Below are positions 18,049 to 21,831 of a stretch of 64,000 nucleotides of DNA, piece by piece. A model generated the notes under the pieces. It saw only the letters and a list, made by a program, of their open reading frames with translations. It was not told the DNA's origin and did not search any database. The stretch is from the NCBI RefSeq assembly GCF_008974325.1, contig NZ_BKCG01000002.1:310001-374000 (forward strand). Reading direction: 5' to 3'. Both the position numbers and the translations under genes were made by a program. The stretch comes from Patiriisocius marinus. Lineage in GTDB: Bacteria; Bacteroidota; Bacteroidia; Flavobacteriales; Flavobacteriaceae. How positions within the stretch are numbered: position 1 is the stretch's first letter; each line of letters starts with the position of its first letter.

Positions 18049-18136
18049 TTAGTTATTTGGTAGTTAGGATTTAAATTATTAGTTTTAAATTAAATAATAA
18101 TGGCTCCCCATAATTAATAAATTTAAATTCTTTTTT

Positions 18137-21082
18137 ATGAGGACACCTTTCGCACACCTTTCGCACACCTTTCGCACATTTTTTAGCACGTTATTTTTAG
18201 TCATTGCCAGTATGTCACTCTATGCGCAAAATAATGTTTTTTATAAAATAGAATTTAAAGAAGATCAAAGTGTTGAAATACTTAATACTTCTGTAAATAA
18301 TGATAATACCTTAAGCATTACAACTGACAAAGCTAATTTTAATTCATTTATAACTGGCAAACCCATATACAAATTTGAAAAAGCGTTCCCGCTCTTTACA
18401 ACACCTAGGTTACAACGTGTTTATCTTATTGAGGTTCCTGTAAGTTATAATATTACATCTTTTACTCAACGTACAGATGTAGAACAATTAGTACCTTACG
18501 AGGAAGAGGTGCCTATTTTATTATCAAACATAGAGCCTAATGATTATATCGAGAATTTACAAGAAGATAGACCAAATCCTTCACTAGATTTAATTAAAGC
18601 ACCCCTTGCTTGGTCAATAACCACAGGAGACCCAAATATTTATATTGGTATTATTGATGGCGATTTTTGGACTGGACACGAGGAATTGCAAGGCAAAGTT
18701 ATTACCAATCTTGATGATGAAAATCCAAATAGTAATTCTAACACAGCATTTAATTATCTTAAACACGGTACTCAAGTCTCTGCTGTTGCGGCAGGCAATA
18801 CTGATAATGGGTTAGGAATGGCAGCAATAGGTTACAATACAAGCATTGTAACAGCTGATGATTTTGGCAGTGTCAATAGAGTAAAAGAAATTTCATTAAT
18901 TCCAGGAGTAAAAGTTATTAACTGTAGTTGGATTAGACGATGTAGCTTTGATACATATGAGGATATAGCATATCAAGAAATTTTAGATAGTGGAGTATTA
19001 GTAGTTGCCGGAGCAGGAAATGGTCCCAATGGTGGTAGTTGTGGAGGAGGTCATGGATATGCTTACCCAGCATCTTATGACGCTGTAATTTCTGTAACAG
19101 GGGTAGGAAATAGGTACGATATTGGAGAAAATAACCCGTTGATAAATCCTCAGGGTGATTGGGATTTTGGTATAGTAAAATCTTGGTATGATTGTCATTA
19201 TTACAATCCAGATAATATACCAGTGGGATCACTTACACATAATGATAAAGTAAATGTCAGTGCTCCGGGTCTTTTTGTGCAATTAAGTTCTATTGAATCA
19301 CCTAGCATTCCTTTGACAGAGAAGTATGAATATGGAATAGGAACTTCAATGGCAGCTCCTTTTGTTTCTGGATTAGCTGCTTTAGTTTTTGCGGCAAACC
19401 CAAATTTAACAGCAGTTGAAGTAAAAGATATTATTGAATCTACAACAGATGATATATATCATATTCCACAAAACAGGAATGTAGATCCAAATTTAGATTT
19501 ACATGGAAAATTAGGAACGGGTCGCATTAATGCATTTAGAGCAGTAAAAAAAGCTAAATGCTCAGAAGTAGCTTCACCCGAAAAAGATTGGGCAATGCAG
19601 AACTCTAGATATGATATGTTTATAGAACCTGATATTTATACAGATGAGGTTTTTTGGCAAAGTGAAGATATTTGGGTACGTAATACAAATGATGGACAAC
19701 TAATACAAACTCATCAAAACCCAGAATTTGATCCTTCGGAACCTAATTATGCTTATGTTGAAGTAACTAATAATAGCTGTTGGGAAACGCAAGAAAATGA
19801 ATTTACTACTGTTACACTTTATTGGGCAAAAGCAAGCACCTCACTTTCCTGGCCAAATAATTGGGACGGTTCTACTACAATCCCAAATCCAAACGGAGGA
19901 GCACCTATAGAATTGGGTGGCGTTGTTGGTACTATGCAAATTCCTAGTTTAAAAATTGGACAATCTAAAATTTTAGAATTTCCTTGGTTAATTCCTAATC
20001 CAGAGGATTATATAGATATTAATCCTAATCCTTGGCATTTTTGTTTACTTGCAAGAATTACATCTCACGATGACCCTATGGCAATAGCAGAAACTGATGC
20101 TATTACATTAAATGTTAAAAATAATAATAACTTAGCTTGGAAAAATACAACAATAGTCGATTTAAGAACTATGGTAGATGCAACAGTGGGTGGGGTTATT
20201 GCTATTGCAAATAATACTGATGTAGCTAAATCTTATATATTAGAATTAAGGCCAAAAGCAGATGAGTTAGGGAAACCATTGCATGAGGAAGCCGAAATTA
20301 CGGTAACTTTAGATGCTAATTTATTGGCCGCTTGGCAGGGAGGTGGTAGTTTATCTCAGGATTTATCACTACAATTTTTAGTAAATAAAAAAACTGTAGA
20401 TGGATCACTTGCACAATTACAGAATATTCAATTAGCACCTGGTGAAATAACAACCGCATATATCAGTTTTAATTTTCTTACTCAAGAATTAACCGATAAG
20501 AAAAAGTTTGTTTATGAAGTGGTGCAAAGAGATGCAGTAACAAATGAGATTATAGGTGGGGAAACCTATATAGTACGTAAAGATGAAAGACCAATTTTTA
20601 CAGCAAATGCAGGAGCGGACAAAGAGATTGAAAAAAATGAAAATGTAACACTGCAAGCCTCAGTAATTGACGAGAATGCTACATATAATTGGTATGACCC
20701 ACAAGGAACACTTATATATACAGGAACTGATTTTACACTTTCTCCAGATATTACAAAGAAGTATAAGTTAGAAATTATTTCAGATATAGATGGATTAAAA
20801 GATTATGATGAAGTTGAGGTTGTTGTAAATCCATATAAGATAGAATCTATTTCGCCTAATCCAGTTTCTAATGTTGCCACAATAGCCTATGATGCAGAAC
20901 TAGCAAACTCCGCATATTTACGTGTTGTTAATACTAATACTGGTAATGAGTATAATTACATACTCGACATTAATGAAACCGAATACGTAATTGATACAAC
21001 ATTATTTACGATAGGTTCTTACGTGGTCGCACTTATATGCAATGGCGAATTTCAAACATCTAAAATTTTAGTTAAACAATAA
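18137..21082 (+). CDS. Secreted subtilisin-like (S8) serine protease with T9SS sorting domain
   Basis: A 981-residue secreted protease. The signal peptide (about 1-31, ending LYAQ) is followed by a pro-region, then the S8 catalytic domain with Asp174 (IIDGD), His210 (KHGTQVSAVAAG), oxyanion Asn295 (VAGAGN) and Ser404 (GTSMAAP). Beta-rich domains follow, and the last 80 residues (ISPNPVSNVATI...SKILVKQ) form a type A sorting domain for type IX export. Directly after the start codon are three perfect 11-base repeats inside the signal peptide. It is 11 bases from the next gene, also a T9SS cargo. Confidence 0.93.
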   Translation: MRTPFAHLSHTFRTFFSTLFLVIASMSLYAQNNVFYKIEFKEDQSVEILNTSVNNDNTLSITTDKANFNSFITGKPIYKFEKAFPLFTTPRLQRVYLIEVPVSYNITSFTQRTDVEQLVPYEEEVPILLSNIEPNDYIENLQEDRPNPSLDLIKAPLAWSITTGDPNIYIGIIDGDFWTGHEELQGKVITNLDDENPNSNSNTAFNYLKHGTQVSAVAAGNTDNGLGMAAIGYNTSIVTADDFGSVNRVKEISLIPGVKVINCSWIRRCSFDTYEDIAYQEILDSGVLVVAGAGNGPNGGSCGGGHGYAYPASYDAVISVTGVGNRYDIGENNPLINPQGDWDFGIVKSWYDCHYYNPDNIPVGSLTHNDKVNVSAPGLFVQLSSIESPSIPLTEKYEYGIGTSMAAPFVSGLAALVFAANPNLTAVEVKDIIESTTDDIYHIPQNRNVDPNLDLHGKLGTGRINAFRAVKKAKCSEVASPEKDWAMQNSRYDMFIEPDIYTDEVFWQSEDIWVRNTNDGQLIQTHQNPEFDPSEPNYAYVEVTNNSCWETQENEFTTVTLYWAKASTSLSWPNNWDGSTTIPNPNGGAPIELGGVVGTMQIPSLKIGQSKILEFPWLIPNPEDYIDINPNPWHFCLLARITSHDDPMAIAETDAITLNVKNNNNLAWKNTTIVDLRTMVDATVGGVIAIANNTDVAKSYILELRPKADELGKPLHEEAEITVTLDANLLAAWQGGGSLSQDLSLQFLVNKKTVDGSLAQLQNIQLAPGEITTAYISFNFLTQELTDKKKFVYEVVQRDAVTNEIIGGETYIVRKDERPIFTANAGADKEIEKNENVTLQASVIDENATYNWYDPQGTLIYTGTDFTLSPDITKKYKLEIISDIDGLKDYDEVEVVVNPYKIESISPNPVSNVATIAYDAELANSAYLRVVNTNTGNEYNYILDINETEYVIDTTLFTIGSYVVALICNGEFQTSKILVKQ
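18143..18175 (+). repeat. Three tandem 11-bp repeats at the start of the protease gene
   Basis: The unit ACACCTTTCGC occurs three times in a row without mismatch, starting 6 bases into the coding region. Because 11 is not a multiple of three, a change of one unit shifts the frame. I worked out both cases: two copies lead to a TAG after 12 codons, four copies to a TAG after 24 codons. Only the present number keeps the protease in frame among these. Confidence 0.9.
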
Positions 21083-21093
21083 AATCTCTTATT

Positions 21094-21831
21094 ATGAAAA
21101 ATATATTTTTAGTTTTGATAAGTCTGTTCTCTTTACAGCAGGTAGTGTCTCAAAATCCAGATCCGCAGTTGTTTGAAAATATTTGGTATTTAACTAGTTT
21201 GACTATCGAAGGTTCACCAATAGAATTTCCTGAAAACAGCGAGTTTACTCCACCAGATTTAAATTTTGATTTAAATAGTGGAGATGTAACATTATTTACT
21301 TGTAATTGTTATTGTCACGAAAGCGACGGCGTTTTATTTGTTTCAGGGTTTTTTACATTGCCAAATGGTTTACCTTTTTTAATTGATGTTGGTTGTCCTA
21401 TTTCAGAAAACATGAATTTCCATGATATTTATTTCGATGATTTTTTTCAACATGAAATACCCGAAGTTAGCAATCCAATAGCCTATGAAATTTTAACAGA
21501 TAGCGATGGCAATAAACAACTTACGCTAACCAACAGCAATGGAGATATTGCCGTGTATGGCGATCAGTTATTACTTACTTTAGAAAATACGGCAGCTACT
21601 TTTTCACTAGTTACAAATCCTGTACAAAATAATTTAGAGTTACAATTTCCAAATGCTACTCAAAACCGAGCTGTGCAGATTTATGATATTACAGGGAAAT
21701 TGGTTAAGTCAACAACTTCAAACCAAGAGACTAATTTAAAATTTGATGTTTCTGTATTAGAAGGTGGAATGTATTTAGTAGTTGTTGCTGAAGGAACCAA
21801 AAAAAGTATTCGTAAATTCATAAAAAGATAA
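21094..21831 (+). CDS. Secreted protein of unknown function with T9SS sorting domain
   Basis: A 245-residue secreted protein: signal peptide (about 1-19, ending VVSQ), a domain of about 140 residues that I do not recognise, with a cysteine cluster CNCYC (near residue 70) and one more Cys near 107, and a C-terminal sorting domain (about 165-245; NPVQNNLELQF...YDITGKLVKS...YLVVV). The gene starts 11 bases after the protease stop, so the two are co-transcribed and both go to the type IX route. It might be an inhibitor, partner or substrate of the protease, but that is only context. Confidence 0.8.
   Translation: MKNIFLVLISLFSLQQVVSQNPDPQLFENIWYLTSLTIEGSPIEFPENSEFTPPDLNFDLNSGDVTLFTCNCYCHESDGVLFVSGFFTLPNGLPFLIDVGCPISENMNFHDIYFDDFFQHEIPEVSNPIAYEILTDSDGNKQLTLTNSNGDIAVYGDQLLLTLENTAATFSLVTNPVQNNLELQFPNATQNRAVQIYDITGKLVKSTTSNQETNLKFDVSVLEGGMYLVVVAEGTKKSIRKFIKR

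What the first reader, a model, noticed from the sequence alone, without database searches (positions are those of the whole stretch)
18143..18175. Three 11-bp repeats behind the start codon of a secreted protease: candidate phase-variation switch
ACACCTTTCGC occurs three times in perfect tandem, 6 bases after the ATG of the T9SS-exported subtilase. Eleven is not a multiple of three, so slipped-strand gain or loss of one unit shifts the frame. With two units the frame meets TAG after 12 codons; with four units it meets TAG after 24 codons. Both outcomes remove the whole protease and, by polarity, may reduce the downstream T9SS cargo. The repeat lies in the signal-peptide n-region, where amino-acid changes are tolerated. 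I know of no description of this switch in this protease family.
Basis: partly seen in the sequence, partly recalled or inferred. Interest (0 to 1): 0.75.

Follow-up and report, generated by a model that had tools for sequence, protein, structure and literature searches.

The report
Repeat-driven on/off switch on secreted proteases
A short DNA repeat right behind the start codon of a secreted protease very probably works as a random on/off switch, because the gene's sister copies and its relatives in other genera carry different repeats at the same spot, several of them caught in the off position.

Summary
In detail: ACACCTTTCGC x3 lies at 18143-18175, one codon behind the ATG of a 981-aa subtilase. 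It is the only perfect array of three or more copies (period 7-30) in the window, and about 0.005 are expected by chance. Only 0, 3 or 6 units leave the frame open. The same genome holds a 73% identical paralogue with a different 11-bp array at the same place (6 units plus 9 bp). That paralogue is frame-shifted OFF in the assembly, although its 950 remaining codons are intact and under purifying selection. Another paralogue (poly-C7), a T9SS metalloprotease (poly-C11) and a decayed copy (poly-C8) are also OFF. Homologues in other genera carry poly-C13/14 (ON), an 8-bp array (OFF) or a 10-bp array in the same position. The repeat type changes, but the site between ATG and signal-peptide core and the non-multiple-of-three unit do not. 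I conclude that this is one locus of a flavobacterial set of repeat-switched secreted proteases. It works like neisserial Opa and NalP but arose in unrelated genes. Switching itself (reads, clones) could not be tested. The three-unit array may switch slowly.

The parts
18104..18109 (+). CTCCCC leader motif 27 bp before the ATG, shared by the repeat-headed protease genes of this genome and by several in other genera; probably close to the transcription start (inferred)
   Evidence: the motif alone is not enriched genome-wide over the reversed-pattern control (14 vs 13)
18137..18139 (+). ATG start codon; no other start yields the protein with its signal peptide
18143..18175 (+). Switch: ACACCTTTCGC x3 (36-bp array to 18178 counting the partial fourth unit); open frame at 0, 3 or 6 units only
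18137..18229 (+). Signal peptide MRTPFAHLSHTFRTFFSTLFLVIASMSLYAQ; the repeat encodes the basic n-region, ahead of the hydrophobic core
   Evidence: sequence reading; no predictor was run
18137..21082 (+). Secreted subtilase (S8), 981 aa, phase ON in this assembly
18635..19453 (+). Peptidase_S8 catalytic domain (PF00082, E 6e-29); motifs HGT and GTSMAAP present
   Evidence: motifs read from the translation
20618..20833 (+). Ig-like CHU_C-associated domain (PF19081, just under the curated cut-off)
20831..21079 (+). C-terminal tail like a T9SS type A sorting domain; below cut-off here, weak matches in homologues (G119 E 1.6e-5, G296:C45 E 5.5e-4)
21094..21831 (+). Small secreted protein with T9SS sorting domain (PF18962, 4e-14), second gene of the cassette, 11 bp behind the protease; conserved downstream of the paralogues and homologues

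Best explanation
The array is a translational phase-variation switch. Slipped-strand mispairing during replication (inferred) adds or removes 11-bp units. Because 11 is not a multiple of three, only unit numbers 0, 3, 6 and so on join the ATG to the signal-peptide core and protease frame; all others stop after 12-35 codons (shown by translation). The repeat lies in the basic n-region, where sequence and length are tolerated, so ON alleles differing by three units still make a signal peptide (inferred). Each such gene in the genome has its own tract (11-bp arrays, poly-C), so cells of one clone can display different sets of surface or secreted proteases and, through the operon, possibly of the small paired T9SS protein (inferred). 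The window copy is ON. Four other loci with the same kind of head are OFF in the assembly, one of them also decayed.
For: (a) The array is real and non-random. (b) The 73% identical paralogue G000:C6 has ATGAGG + ACACCATTCGC + 5x GCACCATTCGC + 9 bp at the same site. It is OFF at 6 units and open at 2, 5 and 8; dN 0.184 and dS 1.55 over 945 codons with no internal stop. Each array is uniform inside but differs from the other, so units have turned over since the genes split. (c) Paralogue G000:C2:157275-160115 has poly-C7, OFF, open at 6 and 9; G000:C1:760229 is a reprolysin-like T9SS metalloprotease with poly-C11, OFF, open at 10 and 13. (d) Only 9 poly-C tracts of >=7 exist in the genome; 3 of them sit behind an ATG, ahead of a signal peptide and behind the CTCCCC leader. 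(e) In other genera: G296 subtilases with C14 and C13, both ON; G119 CACAAGCA x4, OFF, open at 2, 5 and 8; G074 a ~10-bp array; metalloproteases in G296, G075, G087 and G307 with C9-C11, OFF. (f) On the protease tree the repeat-bearing genes cluster (0 of 500 shuffles as low) while repeat type changes between sister rows. (g) Of 15 intact repeat-headed secreted genes 3 are ON, compatible with a random one-in-three phase (own count).
Against: No reads, clones or second strain of the species were available, so no copy-number change has been seen. Three units (36 bp) of an 11-bp repeat may slip rarely. Some homologues (G032, G075:C1, G431, G146) carry no repeat, so the switch is not needed for the protease as such. 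Some repeat-headed copies are truly decayed (C1:949k, G296:C62, G074, G060), so OFF can also be a step towards loss.
Confidence: 0.85

Rival explanations
1. Neutral tandem duplication: the repeats arise by slippage in a tolerant n-region, the window gene is simply expressed, and the frame-shifted relatives are ordinary pseudogenes.
For: Some relatives are clearly decayed: C1:949k with internal deletion, G296:C62 truncated, G074 with a broken signal peptide. No switching observed.
Against: The C6 copy keeps ~950 intact codons with dN/dS about 0.12; C2b, C1:760k and G119 also keep full frames that a one- or two-unit change reopens. Different repeat types recur at one spot and always with units not divisible by three, which neutrality does not predict.
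Confidence: 0.1
2. The repeat tunes amount rather than on/off: unit number changes the n-region or early codons and so export or translation efficiency, with ribosomal or transcriptional slippage on the repeat giving some product in every state.
For: The repeat encodes basic residues of the n-region; long poly-C tracts can cause transcriptional slippage (general knowledge, not tested here).
Against: 11, 8 and 1 bp units change frame at each step, so most states stop within 8-51 codons; tuning would favour units divisible by three.
Confidence: 0.04
3. The protein starts downstream of the repeats and the array is in a leader.
For: An in-frame ATG exists at 18212; the mechanical ORF caller starts the C6 copy at such an ATG.
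Against: That start removes the hydrophobic core of the signal peptide in the window gene, C6 and C2b; none of them has an in-frame ATG, GTG or TTG between the repeat and the core.
Confidence: 0.01

Closest known systems
Neisseria Opa proteins (CTCTT pentamers in the leader-peptide coding region)
   Same: Coding repeat inside the signal-peptide region; unit not divisible by three; frame-shift ON/OFF by slipped-strand mispairing; several paralogues switching independently (PMC3960869)
   Different: Opa are adhesins with one repeat type in the hydrophobic leader; here proteases, probably T9SS-exported, in Bacteroidota, with 11-, 8-, 10- and 1-bp units in homologous genes, in the n-region
Neisseria meningitidis NalP (phase-variable autotransporter that cleaves surface proteins)
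   Same: Phase-variable exported protease controlled by a coding poly-C tract (lengths 6-15, ON at 7, 10, 13; PMC3723659); subtilisin-like by general knowledge. The poly-C relatives here behave in the same way on paper
   Different: NalP is a type V autotransporter; here T9SS-type cargo in flavobacteria, with 11-bp arrays in the window pair
Putative phase variation of FSD adhesin genes in Ornithobacterium hominis (Flavobacteriales)
   Same: Another flavobacterial surface-protein set with a putative phase variation mechanism (PMC13183296)
   Different: Adhesins, not proteases; mechanism not detailed in the passage read
Invertible promoters of Bacteroides
   Same: Phase variation of surface features in the same phylum (general knowledge)
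   Different: DNA inversion by recombinases acting on promoters; here no recombinase or inversion is implied

Membership tests
Simple-sequence-repeat (contingency) phase-variable locus, translational type | Tandem repeat inside the coding region, unit not a multiple of three | tested here: met
   11-bp unit x3 at 18143-18175; open at 0, 3, 6 units only
Simple-sequence-repeat (contingency) phase-variable locus, translational type | ON and OFF alleles exist with an otherwise intact gene | tested here: met
   Met across paralogues and homologues (window ON, C6/C2b/G119 OFF, G296 ON), not for alleles of one gene
Simple-sequence-repeat (contingency) phase-variable locus, translational type | Repeat number varies between strains or cells of one species | not testable with these tools
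   One genome per species held; no reads. Indirect: arrays of the two sister genes are each uniform but differ in unit and number
Simple-sequence-repeat (contingency) phase-variable locus, translational type | Expression follows repeat number | not testable with these tools
   needs reporter or protein data
Peptidase S8 (subtilase) | S8 domain with Asp/His/Ser motifs | tested here: met
   PF00082 E 6e-29; HGT and GTSMAAP motifs in the translation; closest solved chain AK.1 protease
T9SS cargo | N-terminal signal peptide and C-terminal type A sorting domain in a T9SS-positive genome | tested here: inconclusive
   Signal peptide evident by reading; sorting domain below cut-off in the window protein, weak in homologues; SprA present in the genome
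NalP | Type V autotransporter beta-barrel | tested here: not met
   No autotransporter barrel family reported for the window protein; works like NalP but is not a member

The most novel reading that the evidence does not exclude
Members of the Flavobacteriaceae keep sets of randomly switched, mostly secreted proteins, chiefly proteases of two unrelated catalytic kinds (subtilases and reprolysin/M43-like metalloproteases). They are controlled by exchangeable simple repeats inserted between the start codon and the signal-peptide core. The switch is retained while the repeat itself is replaced (poly-C, 8-, 10- and 11-bp units), so each cell of a clone presents its own combination of secreted proteases.
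Probability: 0.6. Interest if true: 0.75.

Novelty: new variant of a known kind. Interest (0 to 1): 0.64.

Why it matters
Repeat-driven phase variation is best known from host-adapted Proteobacteria; in Bacteroidota the known switches are mostly DNA inversions (general knowledge). A set of secreted proteases under independent repeat switches in flavobacteria would mean that clonal populations are mixtures in their extracellular digestion, for instance producers and non-producers of a shared good, or variants that escape phages or grazers. It would also mean that gene callers routinely mis-start or lose these genes, as happened here for the C6 copy. The replacement of one repeat type by another in homologous genes gives a natural series for studying how contingency loci evolve.

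Tried and rejected
Named relatives (search for related loci in genome contigs): only a metalloprotease with the same C-terminal module and a distant hit. Same genus: no full-length orthologue, only a ~560-aa subtilase without a repeat. CTCCCC leader as a stand-alone predictor: not enriched over its reversed control, and most family-wide matches are chance, so it is reported only as a shared feature. Fold of the small second protein: PDB profile search matched only its T9SS tail; its N-terminal part has no named family. Structure prediction of its alignment was not submitted because most rows come from loci outside the tool's stated sources. Literature: no paper found on repeat switches of T9SS cargo or of flavobacterial proteases; the library is open-access only.

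Full report
OBSERVATION. The window gene at 18137-21082 begins ATG AGG and then has ACACCTTTCGC three times without a mismatch at 18143-18175, plus three more matching bases. It is the strongest tandem array in 64 kb (TRF score 72). It is the only perfect array of at least three copies with a period of 7-30 bp, and 200 dinucleotide-preserving shuffles gave one such array in total. Rebuilding the gene with 0-7 units shows open frames only at 0, 3 and 6 units; 1, 2, 4, 5 and 7 units stop after 13, 12, 24, 23 and 35 codons.

THE GENE. The product is a subtilase (PF00082, E 6e-29) with an Ig-like domain and a tail resembling a T9SS sorting domain. The tail falls below the Pfam and NCBIfam cut-offs in this protein and matches weakly in homologues. 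The T9SS translocon protein SprA is encoded in the genome. No family of autotransporter barrels was reported. Eleven bases downstream is a small protein with a clear T9SS sorting domain. The same pair of genes recurs at the paralogous loci and in other genera. The repeat encodes the basic start of the signal peptide; the next in-frame ATG (18212) would remove the hydrophobic core.

THE SISTER GENE. The same genome holds a 73% identical copy on contig C6. Its start reads ATG AGG ACACCATTCGC, five times GCACCATTCGC, then GCACCATTC. It is an 11-bp array at the homologous place with a slightly different unit. With six full units the frame closes after 40 codons, and it is open at 2, 5 or 8 units. 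The rest of the gene is intact (950 codons, no stop), with dN 0.184 and dS 1.55 against the window copy by NG86 (dN/dS about 0.12; dS is near saturation, so only the direction matters). The OFF copy has therefore been selected as a protein for most of its history. Each array is uniform inside while the two differ from each other, so units have been gained and lost since the genes separated. This is the nearest thing to evidence of slippage that sequence alone can give.

OTHER LOCI IN THE SAME GENOME. A third paralogue (47% identity, C2:157275-160115) has seven C behind ATGAAAAATTTTAACTTTA and is OFF; six or nine C open it. A fourth (C1:949k) has eight C, is OFF, and has also lost its middle. 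A fifth locus (C1:760k) is an unrelated reprolysin-like metalloprotease with PKD and T9SS domains. It has eleven C behind ATGAAAAAATTTA and is OFF; ten or thirteen C open it. A sixth (C1:540k) is a leftover head of one repeat unit in front of an orphan small T9SS gene. The genome has only nine poly-C tracts of seven or more, and three of them are these heads. All of these loci share a CTCCCC motif some 25-45 bp before the ATG. That motif alone is not enriched in the genome.

OTHER GENERA. In a sample of 399 Flavobacteriaceae genomes the full-length protease is rare: own genome plus six others, with one more in the genus of G296. In G296, two copies carry C14 and C13 behind a near-identical ATGGATA...TATTTTA head and both are ON. 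In G119 the unit is CACAAGCA x4, OFF, open at 2, 5 or 8. In G074 a long ~10-bp array precedes a decayed signal peptide. G032, G146, G075 and G431 have no repeat. Secreted metalloproteases in G296 (two), G075, G087 and G307 have C9-C11 in the same position and are OFF; one of the G296 pair shares the C-terminal module of the subtilase. On the tree, repeat-bearing subtilases cluster (0 of 500 shuffles as low), while repeat types differ between sister rows: 10-bp G074 is sister to poly-C13 G296, support 100/99. Support for a single origin is weak (43/55). At one chromosomal site, between an RNase H gene and a ribokinase-like gene, the own genome has the poly-C metalloprotease and G296 has a poly-C subtilase remnant. 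Cassettes are thus exchanged at a fixed address.

MECHANISM. Shown: position, unit size, reading frames, ON and OFF states across the gene family, conservation of OFF frames, replacement of repeat types. Inferred: slippage as the cause, reversibility, effect on secretion, effect on the downstream gene. Counting intact repeat-headed secreted genes (window, C6, C2b, C1:760k, G296 C74, C82, C45 and C10, G075:C2, G087, G119, G307, G006, G249 and one in G408), 3 of 15 are ON. This is not far from the one in three expected if frame is random, but several of these loci were read only to the edge of the fetched stretch. The three-unit window array probably switches more slowly than the six-unit array or the long poly-C tracts; this is an expectation, not a measurement.

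COMPARISON. The mechanism matches Opa (CTCTT repeats in the leader-peptide region, PMC3960869) and NalP (phase-variable exported protease with a poly-C tract, ON at 7, 10 and 13 C, PMC3723659). The genes are not members of those families. For flavobacteria, one paper mentions a putative phase-variation mechanism of adhesins in Ornithobacterium hominis (PMC13183296). I found no description of repeat switches on T9SS cargo or flavobacterial proteases in the open-access library.

VERDICT. It is a new variant of a known kind: repeat-driven contingency loci, here on flavobacterial secreted proteases, with exchangeable repeat types. The missing piece is direct observation of copy-number change.

Noticed in passing
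L223 (G408:C31:6397): DNA methylase (PF01555), by sequence a type III-like Mod, with poly-C10 a few codons behind its ATG, ON: a possible phase-variable methyltransferase in the same family.
   Followed up: partly
L217 (G006:C1:246451, same genus as the window): Lipoprotein-like gene without a Pfam family, poly-C8 behind ATGAAAATTTGCAATA, OFF; the only repeat-headed gene found in a congener.
   Followed up: partly
L207 (G249:C10:123123) and L228 (G408:C96:73551): Surface-type proteins (DUF285/InlB-like; DUF2911) with poly-C9 and C10 behind the ATG, both OFF.
   Followed up: partly
L166, L180, L181 (genus of G296, G075, G431): Intergenic TTTA followed by C9, with similar AT-rich flanks, outside any reading frame and repeated in the genomes; function unknown.
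   Followed up: no
G296:C20:1, G296:C80:161646, G060:C5:1: Assembly contigs that end exactly inside poly-C tracts, as expected if tract length varied among reads, though homopolymer sequencing trouble gives the same.
   Followed up: no
L063 (G000:C1:539841): Head remnant ATGAGGGTGACATTCGTGCACCATTC with one repeat unit and the shared leader, now directly in front of an orphan small T9SS gene; the protease between them is gone.
   Followed up: partly
L077 (G000:C1:758500-766000) and L172 (G296:C62): Same neighbours (RNase H, ribokinase-like) flank two unrelated poly-C protease cassettes in two genera: an exchange site.
   Followed up: partly
L078 (G000:C6:165853): Poly-C8 ending one base before an ATG of a >2000-codon open frame (5' untranslated position); a possible switch of translation initiation.
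   Followed up: no
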